A stretch of 64,000 nt of DNA from Microgenomates group bacterium (GCA_029906985.1 JARYMT010000002.1:1-64000); one strand, 5' to 3'. Counted from the first letter of the stretch, positions 3,521 through 55,051 are shown. Notes: generated by a model not told the origin, from the sequence alone. Numbers and translations: made by a program.

Positions 3521-3967
3521 TTATGGTTCAGTTACTCGGTAACAACCGCGCGGCGATGAACAATTCATCCCGCTCCCACACAAACTGCAATCAACCTTAT
3601 CGGTATCAGCTATGTTCTCTAAGCACGCGCATAAATTATATTTGGCCAAATCTGTAGAATCACGGTGATAATAGTAAGGAGTTGGACCTAAGGGATCGCA
3701 GGGTATTTTATTTAAATAAACCGGATTGGTGCCAAAAGTCGACCCGCAACTGCCAAGTTGATTAGAATTCGGAGTTGGGTATACCGGCAGCGGCTGGTCT
3801 TGTTTATACATTTCCAAAGATTTTTGTATCTGTTTTAAATCGTTTTTTCTTTGAATATCGCGAGCCCTTTCTCTTGCTGCCATCAAATTGGGAAGAAGAA
3901 ATGCTGAAAGCATGCCAATGATCGCTATCACTACTAAAAGCTCTATTAAAGTGAAGGCTTTTTTCAT
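3521..3967 (-). CDS. Cysteine-rich prepilin-like protein, first gene of the pilus cluster
   Basis: Prepilin of 148 residues with leader MKKA and motif [12 protein letters not shown]. The helix is followed by [20 protein letters not shown], as in its paralogs. The C-terminal half holds eight cysteines, including CAC, CSLC and NC...GC spacings, far more than the usual single disulfide of a pilin. This suggests a disulfide-stabilised surface domain. It is the first gene of the minus-strand cluster; its ATG follows a -10 element by 9 nt, so the mRNA is probably leaderless or nearly so. Confidence 0.84.
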
Positions 3968-3976
3968 CTTAAATTA

Positions 3977-4005
3977 ATCATATATTGTAAAAAAACAAAA
4001 ATCAA
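3977..4005 (-). promoter_or_regulatory. Promoter of the pilin/pilM cluster
   Basis: On the minus strand TTGATT (4005-4000), exactly 17 nt, then TATGAT (3982-3977) and 9 nt to the ATG of the first prepilin. The -35 box overlaps one end of a perfect 12-bp palindrome CAAGAGCTCTTG (4003-4014), a possible operator. The same two hexamers with the same spacing occur before rpsF (41077-41105). Confidence 0.6.
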
Positions 4006-4039
4006 GAGCTCTTGCTAAAAAAATTAATAAAGGTTTTTT

Positions 4040-4675
4040 TCATTGCCGGGATAAAGGAGAATAGGTATTTTTAATAAAAATTAAAAGGTGATCATAAGCC
4101 AACCGGAGATCAAGATTGTTTGATTTGATCAAATTATTAACATTAAGAATTTCTTTAAGGACTTTAGCGGCTTTAGGATCATCTGCTAAACGGTTCTTAA
4201 AATATATAATTAATTGGTTTATAAGATCATTGTTCTCGATAGAAAAAATTCTTAAATCTTGCTTTTTAATTAGTAAATCTATTGATTGAACAATGTTTTT
4301 ATCAACAAGGGGAAGATGGAACTTGTCAAGAATAATAATTTTTGATCTGGAAATAATTGTCGGGATAAGTTGGTATTGATTATCGACGGTTAAAATAAAC
4401 TGAATTTGATTTGGCGCTTCCTCCAAAGTTTTTAAAAAAGCATTCTGAGCTTCTAAGGAAGAAATATGAAAATTGTAAAGGATATAAAGTCTTGTTTCTT
4501 TTAAAAGAAAAATTATTTCCTTTTTTATTTTTCTTATTTGGTTTATAGAAAATTCTTTATTTTCCGGAAAAATCCTAAAGATATAATTTGGCATAATTTT
4601 TCTTTGTTGGGAAAAATTCTTGACAAAGTCATCAATTTTTTTTAAATCAGAAGCAATAAGGACAATCGGTATCAT
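4040..4675 (-). CDS. holB: DNA polymerase III delta-prime-like clamp-loader subunit
   Basis: Clamp-loader-type protein of 211 residues. The recognisable block is SSLEAQNAFLKTLEEAPNQI followed by FILTVDNQYQLIPTIISRSK, the AQNALLKTLEEPP and SRC regions of delta-prime and gamma subunits. No Walker A motif is present, as expected for delta-prime, and the protein is about two thirds of the usual length, mostly short at the N-terminus. The start is set at ATG 4675: a TTG further up (4696) lies upstream of an extended -10 (TGT-TAAAAT) and so would not be transcribed from it. It is divergent from pilB. Its likely partner, DnaX, is encoded at 48.4 kb. Confidence 0.72.
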   Translation of the reverse strand: MIPIVLIASDLKKIDDFVKNFSQQRKIMPNYIFRIFPENKEFSINQIRKIKKEIIFLLKETRLYILYNFHISSLEAQNAFLKTLEEAPNQIQFILTVDNQYQLIPTIISRSKIIILDKFHLPLVDKNIVQSIDLLIKKQDLRIFSIENNDLINQLIIYFKNRLADDPKAAKVLKEILNVNNLIKSNNLDLRLAYDHLLIFIKNTYSPLSRQ

Positions 4676-4717
4676 AATCTTATTGCATTTTAACAAAATT
4701 ATTTTTATATTGAAAGT

Positions 4718-6427
4718 ATGAATATTCCACCAAAAGCATTTTTGGATTTGTTGGTAAAAAGTAATGCTTTGGCTTCTGATGTTGCTGATAAAATCGAAAT
4801 CGAAGTCTTGAATAAAAATGTTCCCATCGATGAATATTTGCTTAAAAAAACCAATATCAAAAAGGATTTGATTATGAAAATTAAAGCATATTTTCTTAAA
4901 GTACCTTATGTTGACATTTCTTCATCGGCCATTAATCCGCAAGCGCTAACTTTTTTGCCTGATTCTGTCACCAGAAAATATGAAATTATTCCTTACGACT
5001 ATGATCCCAAAAATGATGTTTTGTATATTGCTACTGCTAATCCGCTCGATATGACTTTAGCTGACTTTTTAGAAAAAAAGACCAATAAAAAAATTGTTTT
5101 TGCTTTGGCTTATCCACCCGATATTAAAAAAGCTATCAGCATTAATTATGTTCAGGGCTTGTCCCCTGAAGTTAAAGAAGCGATGGAAGAAGCCTATTCA
5201 GCCGAAAAGGCTCGGGCTGAAGCAGCCACTACTTCAATCCGTGAAGCGCCAATAGCTAAAATTGTTCATACGATTTTGGAGTTTGCTGTCAAAAGTCGAG
5301 CTTCAGATATTCATATTGAGCCGGAAGAAATTAAAACCCGAGTCCGCTATCGTATCGATGGTGTTCTCCATGAAAAATTAAGTCTACCGATATCAATTCA
5401 TGAATCTTTGGTTTCCCGGATTAAAATTCTGTCCGAAATGCGCATTGATGAAAAAAGAATCCCCCAAGACGGCCGATTCAATTTTAAACTGGGCAACGAA
5501 GAGGTTGATTTACGCGTTTCTTCACTGCCAACTGTCCACGGAGAAAAAATTGTCATGAGGCTTTTAAAAAAAACCGGCGGTCTACCATCGCTTAATGAAT
5601 TAGGTTTGAGAGGTCCGCAACTTAAGGATTTGGAAGAATCTATTAGTAAACCTTACGGGATTGTTTTAGTTACCGGCCCCACCGGTTCAGGCAAAACAAC
5701 CACATTGTATTCGATCCTTTCGCGATTAAATACTCCAAAAGTTAACATTGTCACCCTTGAAGATCCGGTGGAATATCAAATTGAGGGAATAAATCAGGTG
5801 CAAATTAATCCTCAAGCCGGCTTAACTTTTGCTACTGGCCTGCGGTCTTTTTTACGCCAAGATCCCAACATCATATTGGTCGGCGAAATCCGGGATAAAG
5901 AAACCACTCAACTGGCAATACAAGCTGCTTTAACCGGCCACTTAGTTTTTTCCACTCTTCACACCAATGATTCTGCTACCTCTATTCCCCGTCTAATTGA
6001 TTTAGGAGGCGAACCATTTTTAATTGCCTCGGTTCTTAATGCTTCGGTAGCCCAAAGGATTGTCCGGCGTGTCTGCCAATTTTGCGCAGAAAAATATGAA
6101 CCATCTCCAGAAATTAAAGAACAAATTAAAAAAGTTTTAGGTCCTCTTTTACCCAAAACCTATCAAAATGACAAAGAAATTATGCTGTCTCGCGGTAAAG
6201 GATGTAATGAATGCAATAATACTGGGTATTATGGCAGAATTGGTATTTTTGAAGTATTGAAAATTACCCCAACTATCAATAAAATGATTTTACAGGAGGC
6301 AACCGCCAAAGAAATTGAAAATCAGGCGAGAAAAGAGGGATTAATCATTATGAAAGAAGACGGTTATTTAAAGGCTTTAGAAGGAATTACCACCTTGGAA
6401 GAGGTGATTAGAGTTGCCGAAATTTAA
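4718..6427 (+). CDS. pilB: Type IV pilus extension ATPase PilB (GspE family)
   Basis: Cytoplasmic hexameric ATPase that powers pilus assembly, 569 residues as usual for the family. Residues 1-150 form a MshEN-type N-terminal domain. Then come the ASDIHIEPEE segment, Walker A GPTGSGKTTT near residue 320, an Asp box with VTLEDPVEYQ, Walker B ILVGEIRDKETT and the His box GHLVFSTLHTNDS. A tetracysteine zinc site is formed by CQFC and CNEC near the C-terminus. The ATG lies 6 nt after TATATT, so the mRNA may be leaderless. It is followed by pilT and pilC on the same strand, the usual motor-platform order. Confidence 0.95.
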   Translation: MNIPPKAFLDLLVKSNALASDVADKIEIEVLNKNVPIDEYLLKKTNIKKDLIMKIKAYFLKVPYVDISSSAINPQALTFLPDSVTRKYEIIPYDYDPKNDVLYIATANPLDMTLADFLEKKTNKKIVFALAYPPDIKKAISINYVQGLSPEVKEAMEEAYSAEKARAEAATTSIREAPIAKIVHTILEFAVKSRASDIHIEPEEIKTRVRYRIDGVLHEKLSLPISIHESLVSRIKILSEMRIDEKRIPQDGRFNFKLGNEEVDLRVSSLPTVHGEKIVMRLLKKTGGLPSLNELGLRGPQLKDLEESISKPYGIVLVTGPTGSGKTTTLYSILSRLNTPKVNIVTLEDPVEYQIEGINQVQINPQAGLTFATGLRSFLRQDPNIILVGEIRDKETTQLAIQAALTGHLVFSTLHTNDSATSIPRLIDLGGEPFLIASVLNASVAQRIVRRVCQFCAEKYEPSPEIKEQIKKVLGPLLPKTYQNDKEIMLSRGKGCNECNNTGYYGRIGIFEVLKITPTINKMILQEATAKEIENQARKEGLIIMKEDGYLKALEGITTLEEVIRVAEI

Positions 6428-6456
6428 CGGTGCTTAAATTTTAATATATTCTAAAT

Positions 6457-7509
6457 ATGGAAATAAAAGAATTGCTCCAAACTGCCATCGAAAGAAATGT
6501 CTCTGATTTACACATCATCCCTGATTATTATCCAACTTTAAGGATAAACGACGAACTTTACCCGTTAAGACAACTAGGAATGATCACCGCGGACATTAGC
6601 CAAACAATGATTTTTTCTATTTTGAATGATGAGCAAAAAGAAAATTTAATGGCTAACAAAGAAATTGATTTCGGCTACGAACATCAAGGTTTTCGCTTCA
6701 GATGTAATGTTTACTTTACCAAAAATAGGCTGGCCGCCGCTTTCAGATTAATTTCTTCAAAAATTAAGACAATTAAAGAATTAAACCTGCCCGATATTTT
6801 TCATCAATTCATTAAACCCAAACAGGGATTAATTTTAATCACCGGGCCTACCGGAGAAGGTAAGTCTACCACGCTGGCCAGTTTAATTAATGAAATTAAT
6901 ATAAATTTCACCAAACACATTATAACAATCGAGGATCCGATCGAATATGTTTATCCACCCGGCAAATCAATTGTTTCCCAAAGAGAACTCCATCAAGATA
7001 CTCATTCTTGGAATATTGCTTTAAGATCGGTTTTACGTGAAGATCCTAATGTTGTTCTAGTTGGAGAAATGAGAGATTATGATACGATTCAATCGGTGAT
7101 CACTATCGCCGAAACCGGCCATTTGGTTTTTTCAACCCTTCATACCGGTTCCACCCCCGAGGCAATAAACAGAATTGTTGATGTTTTTCCCGCCCATCAA
7201 CAAAATCAAATTGTTAATCAATTGTCAGCTGTTTTGAAAGTCGTGGTTGCCCAAAGATTGGTCCCCGATAGTCATCAAGAAGGCAGAATTCCCGCTGTCG
7301 AAATTTTAATTAATACTCCATCAGTCGCCGCCATTATCCGTGAAAGAAAAAATTTTATGCTCGATAATGTTTTGGAAACCAGTGAAGAAAGCGGAATGAT
7401 TCTTATGGAAAAATATTTGCTTAAATTATACCGTGAGGGAAAAATTACCAAAGAGACCGCTCTTTCCTACGCCATCCGCCCTAATGAAATTAATAAATTT
7501 TTAAAGTAA
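6457..7509 (+). CDS. pilT: Pilus retraction ATPase PilT
   Basis: Retraction motor of type IV pili, 350 residues, typical for PilT. Visible motifs: VSDLHIIP in the N-terminal PAS-like domain, Walker A GPTGEGKST near residue 130, IEDPIEYV (Asp box), VLVGEMRDYDT (Walker B) and HLVFSTLHTGSTPEAINR (His box). The C-terminal AIRPNEINKFL corresponds to the AIRNKE region but is not identical. It is 29 nt after pilB and 1 nt before pilC. The presence of a PilT implies retractable pili, as used in twitching, attachment or DNA uptake; which of these applies here is not shown. Confidence 0.93.
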   Translation: MEIKELLQTAIERNVSDLHIIPDYYPTLRINDELYPLRQLGMITADISQTMIFSILNDEQKENLMANKEIDFGYEHQGFRFRCNVYFTKNRLAAAFRLISSKIKTIKELNLPDIFHQFIKPKQGLILITGPTGEGKSTTLASLINEININFTKHIITIEDPIEYVYPPGKSIVSQRELHQDTHSWNIALRSVLREDPNVVLVGEMRDYDTIQSVITIAETGHLVFSTLHTGSTPEAINRIVDVFPAHQQNQIVNQLSAVLKVVVAQRLVPDSHQEGRIPAVEILINTPSVAAIIRERKNFMLDNVLETSEESGMILMEKYLLKLYREGKITKETALSYAIRPNEINKFLK

Positions 7510-7510
7510 A

Positions 7511-8713
7511 ATGTATTTCCGATATCGAGCCTTAAAACAGAATAAAATAATAAACGGCCGCCTTGATGCCAATTCTGAGACCGATGTGATTGACTATCTT
7601 AAAAACAACAATTGTTTGCCAATCGAAATCAAAAAAGTCGAAGCTGGTAGCGGCGGTTTTTTGAATTTTATCTTCGACCGGGTCAGCTTTACTGATATTG
7701 TCGATTTAACAAGACAATTAGCCATTATGCTTAATGCCGGTCTGACCTTAATTGATAGTTTTGATATCATCAAAAAACAGGTCACAAAAAATTCTCTTTA
7801 TCGAATTGTCGAAGACATTGATAAAGAAATCAGAGGAGGAAATTCTTTATCTTCAGCTTTAATGAAATACCCTCAACATTTTTCTTCTTTGTATGTTTCT
7901 TTAGTTAAGGCGGGTGAATCTTCAGGTAAATTGAGTGATATTTTATTAAAGTTGGCGGAAAACTTGGAAAAACAGCGCGAATTTCAGGGAAAAATAAAGG
8001 GAGCTCTAATTTATCCAATTATTATCATTATTGCCATGGTGTCTGTCATGTTTATTATGGTTACCTTTGTTATTCCTAAACTTCTTAATCTGTACAAAGA
8101 ATTTGGCGTGACTCTTCCCTTGAGCACCCAAATTCTTATTGTCATTTCTAATTTTTCCTCAAAATTTTGGCCGTTTATCATTTTAGCGACTATTGGAGGA
8201 ATTTTTATCATTCGTTCTTATCTTAAAACCCATCAAGGTAAAAAAGCTTGGGACAGTTTTACTTTAAAAATTCCAATCATTGGTCCGGTAATAAAAATGT
8301 CCACTTTGGTTGATTCCACCAGGACTTTATCAATTTTAGTTGGTTCAGGGGTGTCTATTCTCGATGCCTTATCGATTATTATCGAAACTTCAAGCAATGT
8401 GGTTTATCAGGATTCCTTTAAAAATATTTATAAACAGGTGGAAAAAGGTGTTTCTTTAGGAACTGCTATGGAACAAGAAGAAGTTTTTCCGCCAATTTTG
8501 GTCCAGATGACCACAGTTGGCGAACAAACCGGTCATCTTGATGATACTCTCTTAAGAATTTCCCGGTATTTTGAAATGGAGTCGGAACTGGCGGTGAAGG
8601 CTTTAACAACAATGATCGAGCCTTTAATTTTGGTAATTTTGGGATTCGGTGTCGGCTTCTTGGTTCTTTCGGTCATCACCCCGATTTATAATTTGACAAG
8701 TTCAATTAAGTAA
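7511..8713 (+). CDS. pilC: Type IV pilus inner-membrane platform protein PilC
   Basis: Polytopic platform protein that couples the PilB and PilT motors to the growing pilus, 400 residues. Two GspF domains are seen. The first starts near residue 55 with DIVDLTRQLAIMLNAGLTL and ends in a strong membrane segment around residues 170-195. The second has TRTLSILVGSGVSILDAL and TTVGEQTGHLDDTL. A final membrane helix lies near the C-terminus. The start follows the pilT stop by 1 nt, so translation is probably coupled. Assignment is firm from motifs and gene order. Confidence 0.94.
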   Translation: MYFRYRALKQNKIINGRLDANSETDVIDYLKNNNCLPIEIKKVEAGSGGFLNFIFDRVSFTDIVDLTRQLAIMLNAGLTLIDSFDIIKKQVTKNSLYRIVEDIDKEIRGGNSLSSALMKYPQHFSSLYVSLVKAGESSGKLSDILLKLAENLEKQREFQGKIKGALIYPIIIIIAMVSVMFIMVTFVIPKLLNLYKEFGVTLPLSTQILIVISNFSSKFWPFIILATIGGIFIIRSYLKTHQGKKAWDSFTLKIPIIGPVIKMSTLVDSTRTLSILVGSGVSILDALSIIIETSSNVVYQDSFKNIYKQVEKGVSLGTAMEQEEVFPPILVQMTTVGEQTGHLDDTLLRISRYFEMESELAVKALTTMIEPLILVILGFGVGFLVLSVITPIYNLTSSIK

Positions 8714-8808
8714 TAATTAAGTAATATTATAATAATTAATTAAAAAATAATTTTTAATACCGATTGCGATTTTTCTATTAAAAATCTTTATTTTTATAAA
8801 AATACCTC

Positions 8809-8838
8809 TTGACAAACAAGAAAAAACTATTGTAAACT
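8809..8838 (+). promoter_or_regulatory. Putative promoter of the prepilin at 8870
   Basis: TTGACA (8809-8814), 18 nt, TAAACT (8833-8838). It lies in an AT-rich spacer after pilC and gives this prepilin its own transcript with a leader of about 25 nt. Confidence 0.5.
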
Positions 8839-8869
8839 GAATTTATTAAATAGTTTTTTAAAAATTAAT

Positions 8870-9358
8870 ATGAAAAAAGGTTTCACTCTTATTGAGCTTT
8901 TAATAGTTATCGCTTTATTGGGAGCTTTAGCTGTTGGCCTTTTAGCCGCCCTTGATCCTTTTGAACAGATAAAAAAAGGAACTGATACAGGAGTAAGAAA
9001 TACTGTTTCTGAACTTCACGGAGCAATAATCCGTTATTATGCTATAAAAAATAAAATGCCGTGGGGAACAACTCCCATCAATGATGTTGCTTCTGGCATT
9101 ACCTTATATATTAGTGATATCATTAGTACTGGTGAATTAAAAAGCGACTTTATTCAATTAGCTGGTGATCAATTAAGCAAAATTACTTTGGTAGGGACGA
9201 GTGAAAGTATTACTGTCTGTTTTAAACCAGATTCCCGCGCTTTTAGAACCGATCCTAACACCAAATATTTATCAAACTTTAGCGAAACAACCAATAATAT
9301 TGCCAACTGTGGAGATCCGGGAACTGTTGACTTTCATTGTTATTGGTGTGTTAAATAA
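8870..9358 (+). CDS. Prepilin-like protein (pilC-linked)
   Basis: Prepilin of 162 residues with leader MKKG and motif G-FTLIELLIVIA (Gly -1, Glu +5). After the helix comes LDPFEQIKKGTDTGVRNTVS, different from the RDAKRK block of the cluster at 2.6-4.0 kb, so it is a separate pilin type. The last 20 residues hold NCGDPG and CYWC, three cysteines close to the end. It lies directly downstream of the PilBTC motor genes and could be the main fibre subunit, although no sequence feature proves that. Confidence 0.85.
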   Translation: MKKGFTLIELLIVIALLGALAVGLLAALDPFEQIKKGTDTGVRNTVSELHGAIIRYYAIKNKMPWGTTPINDVASGITLYISDIISTGELKSDFIQLAGDQLSKITLVGTSESITVCFKPDSRAFRTDPNTKYLSNFSETTNNIANCGDPGTVDFHCYWCVK

Positions 9359-9396
9359 CTCTTGAAATCTAAAAGAAATTTGGTAGTCTTCTAATA

Positions 9397-11364
9397 ATGT
9401 TTTTATTAATTTATTCTCTTTTTTTTGTTTTTTTTTGGCTAAATCAATCAGTTCATTTATTTGGAGGTGATAGCGCAGAGTATGTTACTATTGGCCAAAC
9501 TTGGAGTATTGCTCATCCTCCCGGCTATCCTTTTTATTCTTTGCTTTTAAATCTTTTAAGATTTGTTCTTCCGATTTTGAAACCAATTCAAACCGCCAAT
9601 ATTCTTTCTATATTTCCAACAGTAATTACCGGCTATATTATTTTTTTAACCTTAAATTTATTAAAAGTAGATAAACTAATATCGTTTTTAGTTTCTTTAA
9701 TTTATCTTTTTCTTTTTCCAATCTGGTTATATGCCGAAGTACCAGAAGTCTTTGCTTTAAATAATTTAATTATTTCCCTGATTACTTATTTAATTATAAA
9801 TGGTAACCAAAACAAAAAATACTCATTAATAATTTTTTTGTTAATCGGACTGGCTATTTCTCATCATCATACTTTTGTTCTTTTCATACCCGGTTGGTTT
9901 TTTTTAATAAAAGATAGAAATCAGTTTATAAAAAAAGATTTTTTTAAAAAAATTCTCTTAATAATAATTGGTTTAAGTTTTTATTTTTACGCGCCAATTT
10001 CTGCTTATTTTAATTCACCAATTGATTATGAAAATCCAATTACCTTTAAAAGATTTTTAAATTTATTTTTTCGAACTTCTTATGGTACTTTTAAAGCATA
10101 CACAGGTTCTGTTCCCAATATTTTTAATCAAATATTAACAACCTTTCTTTCTTTTACCTATTTATTAGAAGATTTTAGAATTCTTGGTTTGCTAATTTTG
10201 ATTATTGGTTTAATAAAAATTTTCAAAATAAATAAAAGTTTTTTTAAATTTATTATTGCTAGTTTTGTTATTCATCTTATTTTTTATTTATATACTAATT
10301 TTCCACTTTCAAATTATTTTATTGCCGCTATTTTTGAAAGATTCTTAATAAGTCTTTATCTTATTTTTATTTTTCCATTAGCTTTTGGATTTAGCTATGT
10401 TAATGATTTTATACAAAAAAATATCAAAAGACATTTAAAAAATATTAACTTAAAAAAAATTGTTGGTAAAAGTATTTATCTATTAACTTTTGGCTATTTA
10501 ATAATAGTTTTTTTTACTAACTACAAAATTATTAAACACCTAAAAAAATTGGATTATTTTGACAGATACGCCAAGAACTTACTTTCAACCCCTCCTAAAA
10601 ATGCTATTTTTTACAGTGGTTCTGACAGTGGCGTTTTTACAACCAGTTATTTTTACTATGTTGAAAAATACCGCCGGGATCTTAAATTTGTTTCTTTTGG
10701 TTTAATCAACCGCAATTATTATCAAGAAAAGTTAAAAAAAATTTACCCAAATCTAAAATTTCCAGATAAAAATGCGGAAAAATATACTCTTAAGTTTATT
10801 AACAAAAATATTCAGATTGGCATTTATACTGAATCTCCCATAGTTGAAGGAAGCTGGGCGCCTTATGGTTTATTATGGAAATATTATCCCAATGAAGAAG
10901 CCGCAAAAAAAGACATTGAGTTTTTAATTAAAAAAAATATTGAGCTCTGGAATCATTACCAAATTCCAAAACTTGATAAAACGATTGCCAATTTAGTTCA
11001 ATTTAAGGCGTTACAAGAAGCTTATATATCTAAGTTTATCACCTTTATTAACTTTTTAAGAACCTATAAAAAATATAATGAGGCAATTAATCAAATTGAA
11101 AAAATAATTTATCAGGACAAAATTACTCATCAGTCGTTGTTAAATCTATATCTAATTATTCATTCAGAAACAAAAAACTGTCAAAAAGCCAATCAAATTA
11201 AAAATCAATATTTTAAGAAAAAAAACTATCAGGATAAAGAACTGTTAAAAACATTAATAAACTATTATTATTATTGTCAGCCAAATAATTCTGAATTAAT
11301 AAATCTTAGCAATCAATATCACAATATCTATCTTCAGGAAAACCAACCTCTTAATGAGTTATAA
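9397..11364 (+). CDS. Polytopic DUF2723/GT117-like protein, possible protein O-glycosyltransferase
   Basis: Membrane protein of 655 residues with about 10-12 hydrophobic helices. The loop after helix 1 has GGDSAEYVTIGQTWSIAHPP, matching the DSAE/GE...AHPPGYP signature of DUF2723 (GT117, the family of human TMEM260, an O-mannosyltransferase). Residues from about 380 form a soluble part: a region with YSGSDSGVFTTSYFYYVEKY, typical of these proteins, then a helical C-terminus that may be TPR-like. ATG 9397 follows TAGTCT by 7 nt with TTGAAA 16 nt further up, so a leaderless transcript is likely. It lies between two prepilin genes, which suggests pilin or surface glycosylation. Its 3' end overlaps the convergent next gene by 31 nt. 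Confidence 0.72.
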   Translation: MFLLIYSLFFVFFWLNQSVHLFGGDSAEYVTIGQTWSIAHPPGYPFYSLLLNLLRFVLPILKPIQTANILSIFPTVITGYIIFLTLNLLKVDKLISFLVSLIYLFLFPIWLYAEVPEVFALNNLIISLITYLIINGNQNKKYSLIIFLLIGLAISHHHTFVLFIPGWFFLIKDRNQFIKKDFFKKILLIIIGLSFYFYAPISAYFNSPIDYENPITFKRFLNLFFRTSYGTFKAYTGSVPNIFNQILTTFLSFTYLLEDFRILGLLILIIGLIKIFKINKSFFKFIIASFVIHLIFYLYTNFPLSNYFIAAIFERFLISLYLIFIFPLAFGFSYVNDFIQKNIKRHLKNINLKKIVGKSIYLLTFGYLIIVFFTNYKIIKHLKKLDYFDRYAKNLLSTPPKNAIFYSGSDSGVFTTSYFYYVEKYRRDLKFVSFGLINRNYYQEKLKKIYPNLKFPDKNAEKYTLKFINKNIQIGIYTESPIVEGSWAPYGLLWKYYPNEEAAKKDIEFLIKKNIELWNHYQIPKLDKTIANLVQFKALQEAYISKFITFINFLRTYKKYNEAINQIEKIIYQDKITHQSLLNLYLIIHSETKNCQKANQIKNQYFKKKNYQDKELLKTLINYYYYCQPNNSELINLSNQYHNIYLQENQPLNEL

Positions 11365-13463: not shown

Positions 13464-13466
13464 ATC

Positions 13467-13495
13467 TTGTATTTAATATTTTTTTAATATATCAT
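13467..13495 (+). promoter_or_regulatory. Promoter of the prepilin at 13502
   Basis: TTGTAT (13467-13472), 17 nt, TATCAT (13490-13495), then 6 nt to the ATG. The start site would fall on or next to the start codon, giving a leaderless mRNA. Confidence 0.5.
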
Positions 13496-13501
13496 ATTTT
13501 T

Positions 13502-13972: not shown

Positions 13973-14082
13973 AAAAAAATTTTTGAATTTTGTATTATTC
14001 TTAATAAAACAATATCAGCTAAAAAATTTATAAGATTTAAAAAAGCAGGCTATAAAAAAAATTAAACTGGAATAATTAAAAT

Positions 14083-17818: not shown

Positions 17819-19344
<1,526 letters not shown>

Positions 19345-19350
19345 CTTTTT

Positions 19351-25129: not shown

Positions 25130-25337
25130 GAAGTAATTTTATTTTTTTCTTAAAAAAATCATTAATAAAATAATAATAAAATTCTTTAAAAATTTGTCAA
25201 GACCTTTTTTAATTTTTTAAAAAAATTAATTGTCAGAAAAATAAAATTCCTTTCATTTTTTATAATTTTTTACTTCTTTTTTTATAAATTATTTGTTCTT
25301 GATGATTTTAGTAAATTTATTGATTATAATTTTTTTT

Positions 25338-30834: not shown

Positions 30835-30863
30835 TTGCAAATTAAACCTTCGGTTGTTAAAAT
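30835..30863 (+). promoter_or_regulatory. Promoter of rpsB-tsf-frr
   Basis: TTGCAA (30835-30840), 17 nt, TAAAAT (30858-30863) with TG extension. The rpsB ATG is 9 nt after the -10, leaving a leader of about 2 nt. There is no room for an S2-binding leader. Confidence 0.65.
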
Positions 30864-39002: not shown

Positions 39003-39003
39003 G

Positions 39004-39075
39004 TCGGAGCGGCGGGAGTTGAACCCACTACCTCTTGGTCCCGAACCAAGCGTTCTACCGGTGAACTACGCTCCG
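39004..39075 (-). tRNA. tRNA-Pro (CGG)
   Basis: Minus strand: acceptor CGGAGCG/CGCTCCG with the C1-G72 pair typical of bacterial tRNA-Pro, D-arm GTTCACCGGTAGAAC, anticodon stem CTTGG/CCAAG with loop TTCGGGA (anticodon CGG, G37), T-arm GTGGG-TTCAACT-CCCGC. CCA is not encoded; CATGGC follows, in which ATG starts the next gene. Confidence 0.95.
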
Positions 39076-41040: not shown

Positions 41041-41076
41041 TTTAAAAATTATAATCAAAAAGTCGATAATTTACTC

Positions 41077-41440: not shown

Positions 41441-41446
41441 AAAATT

Positions 41447-41974: not shown

Positions 41975-41983
41975 TAAACTTTT

Positions 41984-42193: not shown

Positions 42194-42295
42194 ATAAAAA
42201 AAGTCAAGCGATATTTTATTTTGCCATTGACGGGTAATTTTCTTGATAAAAAAACATTTAGACTTTGTCTCATTTCCCATGTATAATCAAATATT

Positions 42296-44277: not shown

Positions 44278-44317
44278 TTGGTAAAATATTTTTAAAAATA
44301 AGTTAAAATTTTAAAAT

Positions 44318-45484: not shown

Positions 45485-45586
45485 AAAGTTAACCGATTAA
45501 TTATTGATCGGTGATTGGCAAAAATTTTAAAAAAAATTATCATTCTCCTTTGTTTTTTCCCAGTTTATCAAGTAAAATTTACTCAT

Positions 45587-46915: not shown

Positions 46916-46946
46916 AATTCGACCCCCGCGGTCGAACTTATTTTTT
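46904..46946 (+). terminator. GC-rich palindromic repeat, copy 3, acting as intrinsic terminator
   Basis: CCGGCCATAAA, hairpin TTCGACC-CCCGC-GGTCGAA (46918-46936), then CTTATTTTTTATTTTT. The 7-bp GC-rich stem followed by a T run is a good intrinsic terminator for hisS. The first 30 nt are almost identical to copy 1 at 34331, including the preceding stop codon. Confidence 0.8.
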
Positions 46947-46984
46947 ATTTTTGGTAAAATTACAAAATTACTAAAATTATATTT

Positions 46985-47818: not shown

Positions 47819-47868
47819 TAAACTAATTATCGTCGTTTTAATTTCCATTTCAATTTTTTATTGAATCC

Positions 47869-47878
47869 AAAGGAGGTG
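47869..47878 (+). promoter_or_regulatory. Perfect Shine-Dalgarno site of rpsU
   Basis: AAAGGAGGTG, 10 of 10 complementary to the 16S 3' end (19335-19344), with 7 nt between GGAGG and the ATG. Most other genes in the window show no such site. Confidence 0.85.
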
Positions 47879-47883
47879 TTTTT

Positions 47884-48072
47884 ATGGTTTTTATTACCAA
47901 AAAAAAGGGCGAAAACAAAGATACAATTTTTAGAAAATTTACCCGGTCTTTTATCGAAGAAGACATTGTTACCGAAGTGCGCAACAAACTTTTTTACAAA
48001 AAACCCTCACTGGTTCGCAAAGAAAAAGAAAAGGAAAGGGCTAAATTAAGATATAGTAAAAAAAATTATTGA
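47884..48072 (+). CDS. rpsU: 30S ribosomal protein bS21
   Basis: Small basic protein of 62 residues next to the 16S 3' end. DTIFRKFTRSFIEEDIVTEV and the Lys/Arg-rich tail KEKERAKLRYSKKNY match the family (E. coli 71 residues). It is the only gene in this window with a perfect Shine-Dalgarno site. In Bacteroidetes, bS21 helps hide the anti-Shine-Dalgarno and rpsU has such a site for feedback; the same could hold here. ybeY follows after 10 nt. Confidence 0.9.
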   Translation: MVFITKKKGENKDTIFRKFTRSFIEEDIVTEVRNKLFYKKPSLVRKEKEKERAKLRYSKKNY

Positions 48073-48082
48073 GAAAAAATTT

Positions 48083-48433
48083 ATGATCAATATCGTTATT
48101 TCGTCGCGCTATAAAATTGAAAGAAACCGCTTAAAAAAAATCGTCGCTGATATGTTGGCCCAAAAAGGATTTGGTCCCCAATATAATTTAAACATTATTT
48201 TTATTGGAAAAAACAAGATGCGTAAAATTGCCGACCAATACAAAAAAGAAAATTTAGCCCTGCCGGTTTTGACTTTTTCCTATCTTGACGAAAAAAATAA
48301 TCCGGAAAATCTTTTGGGCGAAATTTTTATTTGCTATCCCCAGGCAGTTCTTTTGGCCGCCGAAAGAGATAAAAGAGTTGATGAAATGATTATCAATCTT
48401 ATTGATCACGGAATAAAAAATTTATTAAAGTAA
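48083..48433 (+). CDS. ybeY: YbeY-like protein lacking most of the metal-binding motif
   Basis: Protein of 116 residues (E. coli YbeY 155). The fold landmarks are present: ISSRYKIERNRLKKIVADML, LNIIFIGKNKMRKIADQYKK and LLGEIFICYPQAVLLAAERD, matching the family LGDIxI segment. The family's final motif HGxLHLxGYDH, which binds zinc by three His, is cut to DHGIKNLLK and stop. Only the first His remains, and no remnant is readable downstream before dnaX at 48448. It is probably not a metal-dependent nuclease. It is co-directional with rpsU and dnaX. Confidence 0.75.
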   Translation: MINIVISSRYKIERNRLKKIVADMLAQKGFGPQYNLNIIFIGKNKMRKIADQYKKENLALPVLTFSYLDEKNNPENLLGEIFICYPQAVLLAAERDKRVDEMIINLIDHGIKNLLK

Positions 48434-48447
48434 TTTAAAAAAATATT

Positions 48448-49488
48448 ATGTTTTATTTAAAATACCGTCCTCACACAATTAAAGAAATTGATAATTTAAA
48501 AGTTGCCGAAATAATAAAAAAGATTCTTCAGTCAAAAAAAATTCCCCATGCTTTTCTTTTTGTCGGCCAAAAGGGGACTGGTAAAACTTCCACCGCCAGA
48601 ATTTTTGCCAAAGCAGTCAATTGTTTAAAGATTAAAGATAATTATGAGCCCTGCAATCAATGCAAAAATTGCCTGGCGATCGATGCCTCCTCGGCGACTG
48701 ATGTGGTAGAAATGGATGCCGCTTCCAATCGGGGAATTGAAGAAATTAAAAATTTAATCAAAGAGTCGGCTTTTATTCCGATGACCTGTCGCTATCGTAT
48801 TTTTATTGTCGATGAAGCCCATATGATCACTCACGATGCCTTTAACGCCCTGTTAAAAACTTTGGAAGAACCGCCCCCATCGGTGATTTTTATTTTAGCG
48901 ACAACCAATCAGGAAAAAATTCCCAAGACGATTGCTTCCCGTTGTTTTATTATTAATTTTGGCAAAGCCAAAAAATCCGATATTTTAAGAATGCTCAAAA
49001 GGATTGCCGCCCAAGAAAAATTGACGGTAAAAAATGATTTGCTGGAGTTAATTGCCAGTCATTCGGAAGGATCTTTTCGTGATGCCGCCAAAATTCTTGA
49101 GGAATTGGTTATCCAAAATAAACTTTCCTTTGAAGAGGGAAAAAATTTTCTTGGCGTTGTCGGCCGGGGTAATTTTTTGGAAATCATAAAAAAAGAGGAT
49201 TTGTCTTCTGCCTTAAGCTGGATTAACGAATTTTCCCAAAAAGGGGGGAGTTTTAAAAATTTGATTGAGGAATTATTAGAGGACTTGCGTCTTATTTTAT
49301 TGGCGAAAAATAAAGTCGTAAATCTTGATGAATCTCTGGTTGATTTTTCCCAAAAAGAAGTAGTTGTCCTTATGAAACTTCTTAACGAAGCTTATGCCAA
49401 TTTAAAAATTACTCCCATCGAATCAATTCCCCTTGAGATTGCCATCACCGAGTTTTATAATTTTAAAAATCATCAGCAAAAAGATTAA
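48448..49488 (+). CDS. dnaX: DNA polymerase III gamma subunit (short DnaX)
   Basis: Clamp-loader ATPase, 346 residues, about the length of the AAA+ and collar parts of gamma, without the tau extension. Walker A GQKGTGKTS (40-48), zinc site C59, C69, C72, C75, DVVEMDAASNRGIEEIKNL, Walker B IFIVDEAHM, and the sensor region ALLKTLEEPPPSVIFILATT. If this is the only form, polymerase dimerisation by tau must be done otherwise. It is followed by ybaB, the usual partner. delta-prime is likely at 4.0 kb. Confidence 0.93.
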   Translation: MFYLKYRPHTIKEIDNLKVAEIIKKILQSKKIPHAFLFVGQKGTGKTSTARIFAKAVNCLKIKDNYEPCNQCKNCLAIDASSATDVVEMDAASNRGIEEIKNLIKESAFIPMTCRYRIFIVDEAHMITHDAFNALLKTLEEPPPSVIFILATTNQEKIPKTIASRCFIINFGKAKKSDILRMLKRIAAQEKLTVKNDLLELIASHSEGSFRDAAKILEELVIQNKLSFEEGKNFLGVVGRGNFLEIIKKEDLSSALSWINEFSQKGGSFKNLIEELLEDLRLILLAKNKVVNLDESLVDFSQKEVVVLMKLLNEAYANLKITPIESIPLEIAITEFYNFKNHQQKD

Positions 49489-49523
49489 AAAACATTTATT
49501 ATAATTTTTAAACTAAATCAAAT

Positions 49524-49784
49524 ATGGTTAATCCACTAGGCGGTTTGGGTGATTTACAAAAATTACAACAGCAGGCGCAAAAGATGCAGCAAGCACTTCA
49601 GCAGGAGCAAGTGGTTGTCGAAAAAAATGGCGTCAAGGTTGTCATGCGCGGCGACCAGCAGCTTATCGAGGTATCTGTTGATGGGATTATCGAAAACCGG
49701 ATTGCTGAAGCGGTTAATGAAGCGGTAAAAAAAACCCAAGAACTAGCCGCCCAAAAATTAATCGAGATTTCCACCCAACCATAA
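49524..49784 (+). CDS. ybaB: YbaB/EbfC nucleoid-associated protein
   Basis: DNA-binding dimer of 86 residues (family about 100). Start GGLGDLQKLQQQAQKMQQAL is the helix typical of the family; GVKVVMRGDQQLIEVSVDG is its beta sheet. The dnaX-ybaB-recR order is common, but here prs has come between and recR is inverted. It is 3 nt before prs. Confidence 0.9.
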   Translation: MVNPLGGLGDLQKLQQQAQKMQQALQQEQVVVEKNGVKVVMRGDQQLIEVSVDGIIENRIAEAVNEAVKKTQELAAQKLIEISTQP

Positions 49785-49787
49785 ACA

Positions 49788-50714
49788 ATGAAATTATTTA
49801 CCGGCTCTTCACATCCAGATTTAGCCAATGAGGTGGCCGAGGTTTCCGGCCTGCCTTTAAGTCAGGCCGAGGTTGTCAGGTTTGACAACTCGGAAGTCAA
49901 AGTGACGATTAAAGAATCGGTTAAAAATCAAGATTGTCTTGTTCTTCAATCGACTTGCAATCCGACTGATTCCAGTTTGATGGAACTTTTCTTTTTTGCC
50001 GATGCCCTTAAGCGCGGCGGCGCCAGCAAAATTTTTGCCTTTATTCCCTATTTTGGCTACGCCCGGCAAAATAAAGAGCACCGGCCGGGAGAAGCGGTAT
50101 CCGTCAATGTCGTTATCCGGTTTTTGGAGACGGTCGGATTTAATCAGGTCTTCTTTTTTGATCTTCACGATGAAGCGACCGAAGGAATTTTTTCCATCCC
50201 TTGTCAAAATTTATCCGCCCTGCCTCTTTTGGCCCAGAACCTTAAAAACTATTTAACTATTAATAATAAAAATAAAAAAATTGCCATCGTTTCTCCGGAT
50301 CAGGGAGGAGTAGAAAGAGCAAGAATTTTTGCCGAAAATTTTTTTCAGAAAAAAAAAGCCGATATTGTCGTTGTTGAAAAAAAACGGGATTTGGAAAGAA
50401 TTCACCAATCAAAAGCGGTCAAACTATATGGTGATGTCAAAGGAAAAATTGCCATTTTGGTTGATGATATTATTACTTCAGGTGGGACTTTAATTCACGC
50501 CGCCGAATTTTGTCTAAAAGAAGGAGCCGTCGAAGTTTTAGCCGCCGTTGTCCACCATGATTTTTCTCCTCAGGCGCCGACGCTTATTCAAAATTCACCA
50601 ATCAGCAAACTTTTTACCACCAATACTATTCCCCTAAAAAACCATCTAAACTTTCCCAAACTTCATGAAATTTCTGTCGCCGGTTTAATTGCTGAAGCGA
50701 TAAAAAAAATTTAA
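49788..50714 (+). CDS. prs: Ribose-phosphate pyrophosphokinase
   Basis: Makes PRPP from ribose-5-phosphate and ATP, 308 residues, standard length. FTGSSHPDLANEVAEVSG, FIPYFGYARQNKEHRPGE (flexible ATP loop), FFDLHDEATEGIFSIP, VSPDQGGVERARIFAENF, and the PRPP motif LVDDIITSGGTLIHAA are all seen. It starts 3 nt after ybaB. It is convergent with recR, with only 4 nt between the stops. Confidence 0.94.
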   Translation: MKLFTGSSHPDLANEVAEVSGLPLSQAEVVRFDNSEVKVTIKESVKNQDCLVLQSTCNPTDSSLMELFFFADALKRGGASKIFAFIPYFGYARQNKEHRPGEAVSVNVVIRFLETVGFNQVFFFDLHDEATEGIFSIPCQNLSALPLLAQNLKNYLTINNKNKKIAIVSPDQGGVERARIFAENFFQKKKADIVVVEKKRDLERIHQSKAVKLYGDVKGKIAILVDDIITSGGTLIHAAEFCLKEGAVEVLAAVVHHDFSPQAPTLIQNSPISKLFTTNTIPLKNHLNFPKLHEISVAGLIAEAIKKI

Positions 50715-50718
50715 AAAT

Positions 50719-51330
50719 TTAATATACTTGCCGACCATCAATCGCTTTTTTTAATGTCCCGTAATCGGCATATTCGAGATTTGCTCCAATCGGCAGCCCA
50801 TATGCTAATCTGGTAATTTTGATTTTTGACTTTTGAGTTTTAAGTTTTTCTTTGATATACATCGCCGTCGCTTCTCCCTCCATATCGGTATTAGTCGCCA
50901 AAATAATTTCTTTAATTGGCGAATTTTTGGCGTTAACTCTCTCAATCAGCTTGTCAATATAGATATCTTCCGGCCTAATGTTGTTTAAGGGGTCAATTCG
51001 GCCATGCAAAACATGGTAAACCCCTTTATAGATGTTGCCGTTTTCAAAAGCCAAAAGATCAAGAACCGATTCGACGACAGTGACGATCGACTGATCACGC
51101 TGTTTATCCTGACAGATCGGACAGCGATCATTTTCGGTTAAATTAAGGCAAACCTGGCAATATTTGGTCTTTTTTTTAAGATTGGCGACTGCTTGAGAAA
51201 ATTTTTTTAATTCTGACTCCGGCAGTCGCAAAAGATAAAAAGCCAGCCGGTTGGCGGTTTTTTCTCCAATTCCAGGCAAGCTCTCAAAAAAAAAGGCGAT
51301 TTGTTTTAAAATCGGAGGCAGGGTATTCAT
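50719..51330 (-). CDS. recR: Recombination protein RecR
   Basis: RecFOR pathway DNA-gap repair protein, 203 residues. Helix-hairpin-helix LPGIGEKTANRLAFYLL, C4 zinc finger CQVC...CPIC (about 60-75), TOPRIM with LATNTDMEGEATAMYI, and a C-terminal SRLAYGLPIGANLEYAD-like segment (ITRLAYGLPIGANLEYADYG). It overlaps the RNase J gene by 4 nt (ATGA). It has been split from dnaX-ybaB and inverted. Confidence 0.95.
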   Translation of the reverse strand: MNTLPPILKQIAFFFESLPGIGEKTANRLAFYLLRLPESELKKFSQAVANLKKKTKYCQVCLNLTENDRCPICQDKQRDQSIVTVVESVLDLLAFENGNIYKGVYHVLHGRIDPLNNIRPEDIYIDKLIERVNAKNSPIKEIILATNTDMEGEATAMYIKEKLKTQKSKIKITRLAYGLPIGANLEYADYGTLKKAIDGRQVY

Positions 51331-52997
51331 AACTGGATAATTTCCGCGATCACCAAAGGCCGTCTACCTTTCTGATGGTAAAAGAATTGCTCTAAATTTT
51401 TAATCAGCTGTGCTTTTAAAGAGATCAGATTAATGATTTTTTCTTTTTTTGGTTTGAGGGTTTGTTCGATCATTTTAATGGCGTTATTAATCAATTCCTT
51501 ATCTTCTTTTTCAAAAATAAATCCCCGGGAGACAATTTTTGGTTGGGTTAAAAGATGATTGTATTGGTCCAAAACAATGAAGGCAATGACAATTCCTTCG
51601 GCTGACAATGTTTGCCGATCTCTTAAGACAATGTTGCCGACATCGCCAACACCATAAGCATCGACATAGATATTGCTGGTGGCGATTGCATCTCCCAGCC
51701 GGGCTTTTCTTTCCTCAAACCAGATAGTTTGGCCTTCAGTAAGACAAAAAACATTTTCTTTTGGCCAGCCCAACTCTTGGATAATCATCTGATAACGTTT
51801 TTGATGGCGGACATCGCCGCCGATGGGAATAAAATATTTTGGGTTGGTAAATCGGGCGAGAAATTTTAAATCTTCCTTGTTGCCATGGCCAGAAGCATGA
51901 AGTTGCTCGGTGATATCCGGATAGATTACCTCTGCGCCTTCAAGAGTTAATTCCTCAATCAGGCTATAGACGCTGGCTTCATTGCCGGGAATCGGATCGG
52001 AAGAAAAGACGACTTTGTCCCCCGGCTTGATTTTAATCAGCGGGTTCTGTTTTTGGCTTAATTTGGAAAGAGCCGAATCATATTGACCCTGGGATCCGGC
52101 CACAATTAAACAAATTTTATTCGGCGGCATTTTGGCAATCTCTTTTTCCTTAAGGACAAGATTATAAGGAATAGGCAGGTAGCCGATCTCTTGGGCTAAT
52201 CTGGTGTTTTCTTCCATCGACCGGCCCAAAAAAAGAATTTTACGATTAAATTTTACCGCCGCTTCAACACATTGCCGAATTCGGGAAATATTGGAGGAAA
52301 AAGTAGTCATAATAAATTTTCCCTTGGTTTTTCTCATTTCATCCTCAAAAGTTTGACTGACGACTGCCTCTGACAAAGTCAACCCCTCCCTTTCCGCTCC
52401 CAGACAATCAGAAACAAGACAAAGAACGCCGTCTTTTCCCGCTTTGACAATATTATAAAAATCAGGCGGCTGACCATAAGGAGGCGTTAAATCAAATTTA
52501 AAATCAGTGCCATGATAAATATTGCCGGCCGGCGTCTTTATCATAAGATGAACAGTATCCGGAATAGAATGGGTCAGATGAATAAATCTTATCTGAAAAT
52601 CGCCAAGGACAAGCTCCTTTTGATAATCAATTTTTTCCAGCCTGACCGTCTGGCCAAATTCTTTGAATTTATTGGCAACAAACGCCGCGGTTAATTTACT
52701 GGCCAAAACTAAAGGCCGGCCCAGTTTTTCATAATGGTAGGGAAGTCCGGAAATATGATCTTCATGACCATGAGTTAAAACAATCGCCTTGATTTTATTG
52801 ATTTTATCAATAAGGTAGCTGATATCAGGAATGACCAAATCTACTCCTAGTTCTCTTTCGTTGGGAAAACCAATCCCACAATCGACAATTAAAATATCTT
52901 TTAAAAGATCGTTTTCGTAAAGCTCATAAAGATACATGTTTTTAGTGACGCCGACAACACCACCCAAAGGCACAAAGCGCAGTTTAAATTTATTCAT
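51327..52997 (-). CDS. rnj: Ribonuclease J
   Basis: Metallo-beta-lactamase/beta-CASP RNase with 5' exo- and endonuclease activity in mRNA decay and rRNA maturation; 556 residues, standard. VLTHGHEDHISGLPY (zinc motif), GTDFKFDLTPP, FSSNISRIRQCVEAA, and HASGHGNKEDL with the beta-CASP His. It would be the candidate for maturing the 16S ends here. The ATG lies 14 nt after a TATAAT that is part of a near-palindromic divergent promoter with the DUF59 gene. Confidence 0.95.
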   Translation of the reverse strand: MNKFKLRFVPLGGVVGVTKNMYLYELYENDLLKDILIVDCGIGFPNERELGVDLVIPDISYLIDKINKIKAIVLTHGHEDHISGLPYHYEKLGRPLVLASKLTAAFVANKFKEFGQTVRLEKIDYQKELVLGDFQIRFIHLTHSIPDTVHLMIKTPAGNIYHGTDFKFDLTPPYGQPPDFYNIVKAGKDGVLCLVSDCLGAEREGLTLSEAVVSQTFEDEMRKTKGKFIMTTFSSNISRIRQCVEAAVKFNRKILFLGRSMEENTRLAQEIGYLPIPYNLVLKEKEIAKMPPNKICLIVAGSQGQYDSALSKLSQKQNPLIKIKPGDKVVFSSDPIPGNEASVYSLIEELTLEGAEVIYPDITEQLHASGHGNKEDLKFLARFTNPKYFIPIGGDVRHQKRYQMIIQELGWPKENVFCLTEGQTIWFEERKARLGDAIATSNIYVDAYGVGDVGNIVLRDRQTLSAEGIVIAFIVLDQYNHLLTQPKIVSRGFIFEKEDKELINNAIKMIEQTLKPKKEKIINLISLKAQLIKNLEQFFYHQKGRRPLVIAEIIQL

Positions 52998-53011
52998 ATT
53001 TGATTATTTTC

Positions 53012-53030
53012 ATTATAACATTGTTATAAT
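53012..53030. promoter_or_regulatory. Near-palindromic divergent promoter rnj / DUF59
   Basis: ATTATAACATTGTTATAAT: nearly its own reverse complement, so each strand carries TATAAT, with TGT-TATAAT (extended -10) on both strands. On plus it ends 10 nt before ATG 53041; on minus 14 nt before ATG 52997. Simultaneous use of both would clash, so rnj and the DUF59 gene may compete. Confidence 0.6.
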
Positions 53031-53040
53031 TATTTTAATA

Positions 53041-53346
53041 ATGAAAATCACGGCCGCTTCGATAAAAAGAAAATTAAGAGAAGTGTTTGATCCAGAGCTT
53101 AACATTTCAATTGTTGATTTGGGATTAATCTATGATATCCGAATTAATTCTAAAAAACAGGTAAAAATAATTATGACCTTGACTACCCCGGGTTGTCCTT
53201 TAATTGATTTTATTAAAAATGATATTTTTGACAAATTAAAAGAGTTGGGATTAAAGGAAAAAGATATTAGCATCGAACTAACTTTTGAACCGCCTTGGAG
53301 TCCGGAAAAAATGACTCCAGCCGGCCGGAAAAAAATTGGTCTTTAA
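53041..53346 (+). CDS. DUF59/MIP18-type iron-sulfur assembly protein
   Basis: Protein of 101 residues. IKRKLREVFDPELNISIVDL, GLIYDIRINSKKQVKIIMTL and TTPGCPLIDF, with the conserved Cys, match the SufT/PaaD/DUF59 fold used in Fe-S cluster maturation. The ending WSPEKMTPAGRKKIGL is also typical of DUF59. No other suf genes are near. The ATG choice follows the -10 element 10 nt upstream; a frame extension to 52936 runs into rnj antisense and is rejected. Confidence 0.88.
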   Translation: MKITAASIKRKLREVFDPELNISIVDLGLIYDIRINSKKQVKIIMTLTTPGCPLIDFIKNDIFDKLKELGLKEKDISIELTFEPPWSPEKMTPAGRKKIGL

Positions 53347-53351
53347 AAAAT

Positions 53352-53879
53352 ATGGTTAGGAAAAAAGCGGCCACCGGCATTTTGGGTGGCACTTTTGAAC
53401 AATTGGAGGATTTCAGCAAAAGGACGACTAAACAAGCAACCCAAGCTTTGGGAAGGACATTTAGTCCGTTAAATATATTGGAAGGAGTAATTCACGGCGT
53501 TGATTATTCTTCTTTAGAAAAGGCCGAGGAAAAAAAAGAAAAAACAGCCAATAACAATACCCCCCTTGACATAGAAAAATTACGGGAAAAATACCATAAT
53601 CAGGATCGGCAAAAAACTGAATTTCTAAGAAACCGGTTATTTCAGCTGGTAAAAAGCGGCGAAGAAAAGGCAATTGCCGAAGAAAAAAAAGCCAAAGAAG
53701 AAAAAGCCCGGAAAGAAGAAATGGAAGCCGATGAAAAAAAACGTCAAGAGGAAGAAAGAAAAAAGCAAGAGGAACAATTACCAATGCCCAAAGGCAAAGT
53801 GCGAAGAAGCATTTTTTCGCCCAAAAAAATGGCCGAACGCCAGAACGCCGAAGTCCGACCATCATCGGGCAAGCATTAA
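53352..53879 (+). CDS. Small charged coiled-coil protein, unknown
   Basis: I do not recognise this 175-residue protein. Residues 1-50 look globular (GILGGTFEQLEDFSKRTTKQ). Residues 110-145 are a Glu/Lys run (EEKKAKEEKARKEEMEADEK), almost certainly a coiled coil or single alpha helix. The C-terminus is basic (KGKVRRSIFSPKKMAERQ). No membrane segment. It starts 5 nt after the DUF59 stop and is likely co-expressed with it. Similar small proteins occur in CPR genomes as hypotheticals, as far as I remember. Confidence 0.65.
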   Translation: MVRKKAATGILGGTFEQLEDFSKRTTKQATQALGRTFSPLNILEGVIHGVDYSSLEKAEEKKEKTANNNTPLDIEKLREKYHNQDRQKTEFLRNRLFQLVKSGEEKAIAEEKKAKEEKARKEEMEADEKKRQEEERKKQEEQLPMPKGKVRRSIFSPKKMAERQNAEVRPSSGKH

Positions 53880-53972
53880 ATAAATTAAATAAACATTAAA
53901 ATTAAAATCACTCCTTTAAAGCCAATTTCTTACTTCTTTGTATTTTTAAAAAAATAAAGTAAAATATCGTTT

Positions 53973-54674
53973 ATGACAATTAATCCTAATGTCGCTATCA
54001 TCGAGGCTCTGCCTGGTGTTGGCGGAGACGAAGCCAAAATCTGGATGAAAGAACTTCTTCTTTCTTATATTCGTCTGGCCGAAAGAAAAGATTTTAAATT
54101 TGTTTATCTTGATGACAATATTGTTAAAATTACTGGTGAGGGCGCCTTTTACCTTTATAAAAATGAAACCGGCGTTCACCGGGTCCAAAGGATTCCGGTG
54201 ACCGAACGCCACGGCCGGATTCATACCTCGACCGCCATCATTGTTGTACTACCGCAGGTAATCCAATCTGATATCCAGATTAATCCCACTGATCTTGAAT
54301 GGCAATTTTATCGAAGCGGCGGCCATGGCGGCCAAAATGTTAATAAAGTTTCCACCGCCGTCCGCCTAATCCACCGACCGACCGGCATCATTGTCACCGC
54401 CAGCCGGGAGCGCTATCAAGAAGCCAATCGGAAAATTGCTTATGAACTTCTATTAAGTAAACTCTACCAGTTAAATGAAGAAAAAAAGAAAGGCCTACTT
54501 CACTCCTATGTCAAAGATGTTGGCAGCGGCGAAAGAGCGGAAAAAATTCGCACTTACAATTTTCCCCAAAACCGACTGACCGATCACCGGTTAGGAAAAA
54601 GTTTTTATAATTTAGAACAAGTCATCGAAGAAGGTAAGTGGGAAAAAGTCCTTAATTACTCCCGACCTCAATAA
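53973..54674 (+). CDS. prfA: Release factor 1-like protein without domain 1
   Basis: Peptide release factor of 233 residues (RF1 about 360). It begins directly at domain 2: [20 protein letters not shown]. The codon-recognition loop [19 protein letters not shown] holds the P-x-T (PVT) of RF1, which reads UAA and UAG. The catalytic [17 protein letters not shown] is intact and the end has [16 protein letters not shown]. Domain 1, which contacts the L11 stalk, is missing. The start is firm: TAAAAT ends exactly 7 nt before the ATG. A PrfH-like rescue factor is an alternative, but the P-x-T loop favours RF1. TGA is used as stop in this window, so RF2 should exist elsewhere. Confidence 0.85.
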
Positions 54675-54748
54675 ATTGGCAATAATTTTATAGCCGCCAA
54701 AAAATATGATAAAAAATTAAAAATTATATGCTATAATTTATTTTTCAT

Positions 54749-55051
54749 ATGAAAAAGAATATTCACCCAAAATATTTTGATCAGGCCAAAGTCGTTTGCT
54801 CCTGTGGCAATACTTTTACCATCGGCTCGACCAAGGAGTCAATTACAGTTGAGGTCTGCAATCGTTGTCACCCTTTTTATACCGGCGAACACCGCTATCT
54901 TGATACCAAAGGCCGAGTAGATGCCTTTCAGAAAAAAGCGGCTGCCGCCGCCCAAATTAAATTAAAAAGGGGGAACAAAAAGGAAAAAAAGGAGTTAAAA
55001 GAAGAAAAAAGAGTAAAAAGTCTCAAAGAACTTTTAAGCGAAGAGTTGTAA
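54749..55051 (+). CDS. rpmE: 50S ribosomal protein bL31 with basic tail
   Basis: Large-subunit protein, 100 residues (typical 66-80). MKKNIHPKYFDQAKVVCSCG and EVCNRCHPFYTG hold the CxC...CxxC zinc site; KGRVDAFQKK is the family end. A 40-residue Lys/Glu-rich tail is extra. The ATG is 11 nt after an extended -10 TGC-TATAAT. In many bacteria rpmE sits next to prfA, as here. Confidence 0.93.
   Translation: MKKNIHPKYFDQAKVVCSCGNTFTIGSTKESITVEVCNRCHPFYTGEHRYLDTKGRVDAFQKKAAAAAQIKLKRGNKKEKKELKEEKRVKSLKELLSEEL

What the first reader, a model, noticed from the sequence alone, without database searches (positions are those of the whole stretch)
3965..54751. Widespread leaderless start sites: -10 element 6-9 nt before ATG
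Seen directly: TATAAT/TAAAAT-type boxes end 6 nt (4718, 13502, 25129-), 7 nt (9397, 22805-, 25338, 41040-, 46985, 53973), 8 nt (42296, 45587, 37291-) or 9 nt (3967-, 27638, 30873) before the start codon. With transcription starting about 7 nt after the -10, these mRNAs would begin at or within 2-3 nt of AUG. Several also have a -35 at 16-18 nt or a TGn extension. The rule also settles start codons that are otherwise ambiguous (hisS, RF1-like, ClpC-like, holB-like). Leaderless mRNAs are known in actinobacteria and archaea; for CPR I know of no detailed account, which is a statement about my knowledge only.
Basis: partly seen in the sequence, partly recalled or inferred. Interest (0 to 1): 0.72.

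Follow-up and report, generated by a model that had tools for sequence, protein, structure and literature searches.

The report
Leaderless genes across candidate-phyla (CPR) bacteria
In this tiny uncultured bacterium (close to Candidatus Roizmanbacteria) and in most of about 240 sampled relatives across its phylum, many genes place the promoter exactly where the RNA copy would begin at the first letter of the protein's start codon, so a large share of the group's messages probably lack the usual leader that guides the ribosome.

Summary
I fetched the whole genome (953 kb, GC 33%, near Ca. Roizmanbacteria) and called genes without using upstream signals. Upstream of transcription-unit-first genes the most enriched hexamer, found without prompting, is TATAAT. 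It peaks sharply at exactly 6 nt before ATG: 41 of 235 divergent first genes, against 4.4±2.0 in shuffles, and nearly nothing at 5 nt or less.

An annotation-free count gives TGNTAWAAT-N6-ATG 30 times, against about 4 expected; ATG is the only triplet enriched there. A mixture fit puts the −10 at 5–9 nt for about 31% of first genes, or about 190 of 818 genes. The motif has a TGn extension and a weak −35 at 17 nt. tRNA genes carry it 8 or more nt upstream. Shine-Dalgarno (SD) use is at chance although the 16S tail is intact.

E. coli and an AT-rich Ligilactobacillus plasmid lack the peak; a plasmid of leaderless Deinococcus deserti has it at the same 6 nt. In 240 other Patescibacteria genomes the 6-nt arrangement is 8.1 times commoner than a 3-nt control, in 107 of 115 families.

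Leaderless transcription is the best explanation. RNA 5' ends were not measured.

The parts
30858..30863 (+). -10 TAAAAT (TGTTAAAAT) 9 nt before ATG of rpsB (30873)
   Evidence: 7.9 bits; phylogenetic footprint in 14 named relatives
30835..30840 (+). -35 TTGCAA, 17 nt upstream of the rpsB -10
   Evidence: TTGCAA/TTGAAA with a 17-nt spacer to the -10 kept in 13 of 14 named relatives
42282..42287 (+). -10 TATAAT 8 nt before ATG 42296
   Evidence: 8.8 bits
27623..27628 (+). -10 TAAAAT (TGGTAAAAT) 9 nt before ATG 27638
   Evidence: 8.8 bits
37300..37305 (-). -10 TAAAAT (TGTTAAAAT) 8 nt before ATG 37291 (5 nt before the adjoining ATG 37294), cysS
   Evidence: 7.8 bits; Pfam
46972..46977 (+). -10 TAAAAT 7 nt before ATG 46985
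   Evidence: 7.1 bits; a second TGGTAAAAT lies at 24 nt (8.4 bits), so two promoters are possible
25325..25330 (+). -10 TATAAT 7 nt before ATG 25338 (ClpA/B/C-like AAA+ ATPase)
   Evidence: 6.7 bits; start undecided, my caller chose 25554
41048..41053 (-). -10 TATAAT 7 nt before ATG 41040
   Evidence: 6.7 bits
22813..22818 (-). -10 TATAAT 7 nt before ATG 22805 (MgtE-N/CBS protein)
   Evidence: 5.4 bits; near -10 also in two relatives' orthologues at 6 and 9 nt
45573..45578 (+). -10 TAAAAT 8 nt before ATG 45587 (hisS)
   Evidence: 5.4 bits; HisRS domain starts at residue 12 from this ATG and at 36 from TTG 45515
53960..53965 (+). -10 TAAAAT 7 nt before ATG 53973 (RF1-like)
   Evidence: 4.9 bits, borderline
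4706..4711 (+). weak -10 TATATT 6 nt before ATG 4718 (pilB/gspE-like)
   Evidence: 3.3 bits
13490..13495 (+). weak -10 TATCAT 6 nt before ATG 13502 (GspG-like pilin)
   Evidence: 3.3 bits
25136..25141 (-). weak -10 TAAAAT 6 nt before ATG 25129
   Evidence: 2.4 bits, poly-A context
9384..9389 (+). weak -10 TAGTCT (TGGTAGTCT) 7 nt before ATG 9397
   Evidence: 2.4 bits
3977..3982 (-). weak -10 TATGAT 9 nt before ATG 3967
   Evidence: 3.2 bits; a better candidate (4.6 bits) lies at 16 nt
   Evidence: 11.3 bits; Pfam PF01197
   Evidence: 10.0 bits
   Evidence: 6.3 bits
19335..19341 (+). anti-Shine-Dalgarno CACCTCC at the 3' end of 16S rRNA (17819-19344), intact
   Evidence: sequence; Rfam RF00177

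Best explanation
Roughly a quarter of all genes, and about 30-40% of transcription-unit-first genes, in this genome are transcribed from an extended -10 promoter (TGnTAtAAT, weak -35 TTGnnn at 17 nt) placed so that RNA polymerase starts at, or within a few nt of, the A of the AUG. This yields leaderless or nearly leaderless mRNAs. A 70S ribosome with fMet-tRNA would bind the 5'-terminal AUG directly. SD pairing is essentially unused in this family even for operon-internal genes, although the anti-SD is intact. The arrangement occurs across most sampled Patescibacteria/CPR families. Shown here: motif, spacing, promoter character, AUG specificity, distribution. Inferred: the actual transcription start and the 70S initiation route.
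For: Unprompted hexamer enumeration gives TATAAT first (60 against 7.9) and TAAAAT second. Sharp mode at 6 nt with a lower edge at 5 nt. EM: divergent first genes 37% at 5-9 nt plus 11% at 10-12, internal 5%, shuffles about 1%. Annotation-free: TGNTAWAAT-N6-ATG 30 against 4.3 expected, only ATG enriched (log10 P about -15), 24 of 30 at called starts against 0-4 for other spacings. TG extension; TTG -35 at spacer 16-18, 33 against 8.6+-2.8. tRNA genes carry the same TGnTATAAT at 8-24 nt, never 6. rpsB -35/-10 block in 14 named relatives sits 6-11 nt before ATG. Controls: E. coli and L. salivarius plasmid (32% GC) no peak; D. deserti plasmid as positive control, TAnnnT peak at 6 nt, 13/125. 240 other Patescibacteria genomes: 3091 at 6 nt against 382 at 3 nt; e.g. 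G159 at 5/6/7 nt = 6/112/34. SD at the chance level.
Against: No RNA 5' ends were available, and a second upstream promoter could serve the same genes (46985 has one). Gene-by-gene conservation outside rpsB is weak: with both orthologues TU-first, P=0.39 pooled, and the significant 'any class' result is driven by repeated rpsB rows. In G060 and the named Roizmanbacteria loci internal genes also show near -10s (18%, 13%), so the TU-first contrast is not universal. About 22% of divergent first genes have no detectable -10 and 28% have it 13-59 nt away, so leadered transcripts must exist too.
Confidence: 0.87

Rival explanations
1. The TATAAT-like stretch is an AU-rich translation element (ribosome or S1 landing site, or an unstructured region) rather than a promoter.
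For: AT-rich, low-structure upstream regions accompany non-SD initiation (Nakagawa 2017, PMC5397173); a bS1 homologue (372-aa frame) is present; composition near starts is AT-rich.
Against: Motif is strand-specific, has a TGn extension and a -35 at 17 nt, occurs at tRNA genes that are not translated, is much rarer at operon-internal genes, and the rpsB -35/-10 block shifts as a unit relative to ATG.
Confidence: 0.05
2. The near boxes are real promoters but mostly secondary ones; the main mRNAs start further upstream and carry leaders.
For: 16% of divergent first genes have a detectable -10 at 26-59 nt and some genes have two (46985).
Against: The sharp 6-nt mode with a cut-off below 6 and AUG-only enrichment imply selection on starting at AUG. 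No SD is left for leadered translation.
Confidence: 0.07
3. Chance in an AT-rich genome, or an artefact of gene calling (in-frame stop bias, start choice).
Against: TATAAT at 6 nt has no in-frame stop; starts were chosen by coding score only; annotation-free counts agree; the L. salivarius plasmid at 32% GC shows none.
Confidence: 0.01

Closest known systems
Leaderless (TA-led) genes of Deinococcus and Actinobacteria
   Same: -10 box at the same place: the D. deserti plasmid peaks at 6 nt here too. Zheng 2011 (PMC3160421) reads TA-like signals about 10-12 bp upstream of the TIS as leaderless.
   Different: Here the box is a full AT-rich extended -10 (TGnTAWAAT), the enriched start is AUG only, and SD is hardly used at all; Zheng describes a degenerate TAnnnT in those high-GC groups, and the D. 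deserti plasmid keeps an SD signal.
GeneMarkS-2 leaderless class of bacteria
   Same: Promoter signal in place of an RBS near the start; 21.6% of bacterial species predicted to use it (PMC9581028).
   Different: That paper's text does not mention Patescibacteria, and the primary paper (Lomsadze 2018) was not held, so whether CPR genomes were classed there is unknown.
Extended -10 TA-led genes of low-GC bacteria (Lactococcus in Zheng 2011)
   Same: Strong TG before the Pribnow box and a weak -35.
   Different: Those belong to an SD-using phylum; my L. salivarius plasmid control shows no 6-nt peak and clear SD.

Membership tests
Bacterial leaderless genes (TA-led / lmRNA) | -10 element whose canonical start point falls at or within a few nt of the start codon | tested here: met
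   mode exactly 6 nt
Bacterial leaderless genes (TA-led / lmRNA) | signal is a promoter, not an RBS | tested here: met
   TGn, -35 at 17 nt, tRNA promoters, TU-first bias:
Bacterial leaderless genes (TA-led / lmRNA) | no SD upstream of these genes | tested here: met
   near-box first genes: 2 of 122 with an SD-like motif; SD at chance genome-wide. The near box occupies the SD position, so this is partly built in.
Bacterial leaderless genes (TA-led / lmRNA) | AUG at the expected start point | tested here: met
   only ATG enriched at 6 nt; GTG and TTG not
Bacterial leaderless genes (TA-led / lmRNA) | mapped RNA 5' end at the start codon | not testable with these tools
   no transcript data
Bacterial leaderless genes (TA-led / lmRNA) | translation by 70S initiation on a 5'-terminal AUG | not testable with these tools
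   YchF and IF3 genes are present, which neither proves nor excludes it

The most novel reading that the evidence does not exclude
Leaderless initiation is an old, phylum-wide default of Patescibacteria, in some families the main route for first genes. In Roizmanbacteria SD-dependent initiation has been given up altogether while the anti-SD is kept, and operon-internal genes initiate by another SD-independent route, perhaps coupling or 70S scanning with U at -1.
Probability: 0.45. Interest if true: 0.75.

Novelty: new member of a known kind. Interest (0 to 1): 0.62.

Why it matters
CPR bacteria are a large, mostly uncultured part of bacterial diversity, and how they start transcription and translation is hardly described. 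I found no account of leaderless mRNAs in CPR in the held library. If true, gene starts in many CPR genomes should be set by the −10 rule rather than by SD models. Heterologous expression of CPR genes will need an added leader. The retained anti-SD without SD use is also a testable question for ribosome evolution.

Tried and rejected
D. deserti with my own gene caller and the TATAAT-like set showed nothing; with annotated starts and TAnnnT it gave the 6-nt peak, so the first result was a failure of caller and motif in a GC-rich replicon. Plain TAWAAT-Nd-ATG counts are a blunt annotation-free test (116 at 6 nt against 45–85 at 0–5 nt); adding TGn made it sharp. Hexamer enumeration for a −35 gave nothing clear; the TTG count at spacer 17 did. 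Orthologue-level conservation of leaderless status was not significant for pairs that are both TU-first, except in G007 (P=0.0097); the other signal is the rpsB set. SD/near-box exclusivity was significant only in G111 (P=0.007) and is partly built in, because the box occupies the SD position. A Bacillota outgroup survey returned only two genomes, each with 4 matches in about 1.9 Mb. The 9–12-nt shoulder is not explained by an upstream in-frame start codon. In-frame upstream ATGs with a near box exceed out-of-frame ones (3/30 against 2/136), so a few starts are probably miscalled.

Full report
Setting. The window is the first 64 kb of a 271-kb contig of a 953-kb, 98%-complete draft genome. Its nearest named relatives, by ribosomal protein S2, are Candidatus Roizmanbacteria (phylum Patescibacteria, CPR). 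All 16 contigs were fetched and joined in the script box. Genes were called with a coding-score-only caller that uses no upstream signal (856 genes).

Noticed in passing
window 53973-54674 (+): RF1-like protein of 233 aa that matches prfA only from about model position 106 on: the N-terminal domain is missing. The preceding gene 53352-53879 has no Pfam match.
   Followed up: partly
window 19335-19341 and all operon-internal genes: Anti-SD intact but SD unused even by operon-internal genes; these genes have T at -1 in 62% of cases and A-rich upstream regions, suggesting another SD-independent route.
   Followed up: partly
Patescibacteria family f21 (G159, G203, G214, G286): 74-112 exact TGNTAWAAT-N6-ATG sites in genomes of 0.7-1.1 Mb, while other genera of the same family have 5-14: a sharp within-family change in leaderless use.
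   Followed up: partly
genome contig C8 120814-121881 (-), locus L180: ychF, a proposed regulator of leaderless translation, itself has TGTTATAAT 7 nt before its ATG.
   Followed up: yes
genome-wide, spacing 10-12 nt: A shoulder of -10 boxes 10-12 nt before ATG that stops abruptly at 13 nt, not explained by upstream in-frame start codons; possibly very short leaders.
   Followed up: partly
window 39003-39075 (-), tRNA-Pro: An AGGAGG stretch sits just upstream of the tRNA-Pro gene although SD motifs are otherwise rare in this genome.
   Followed up: no
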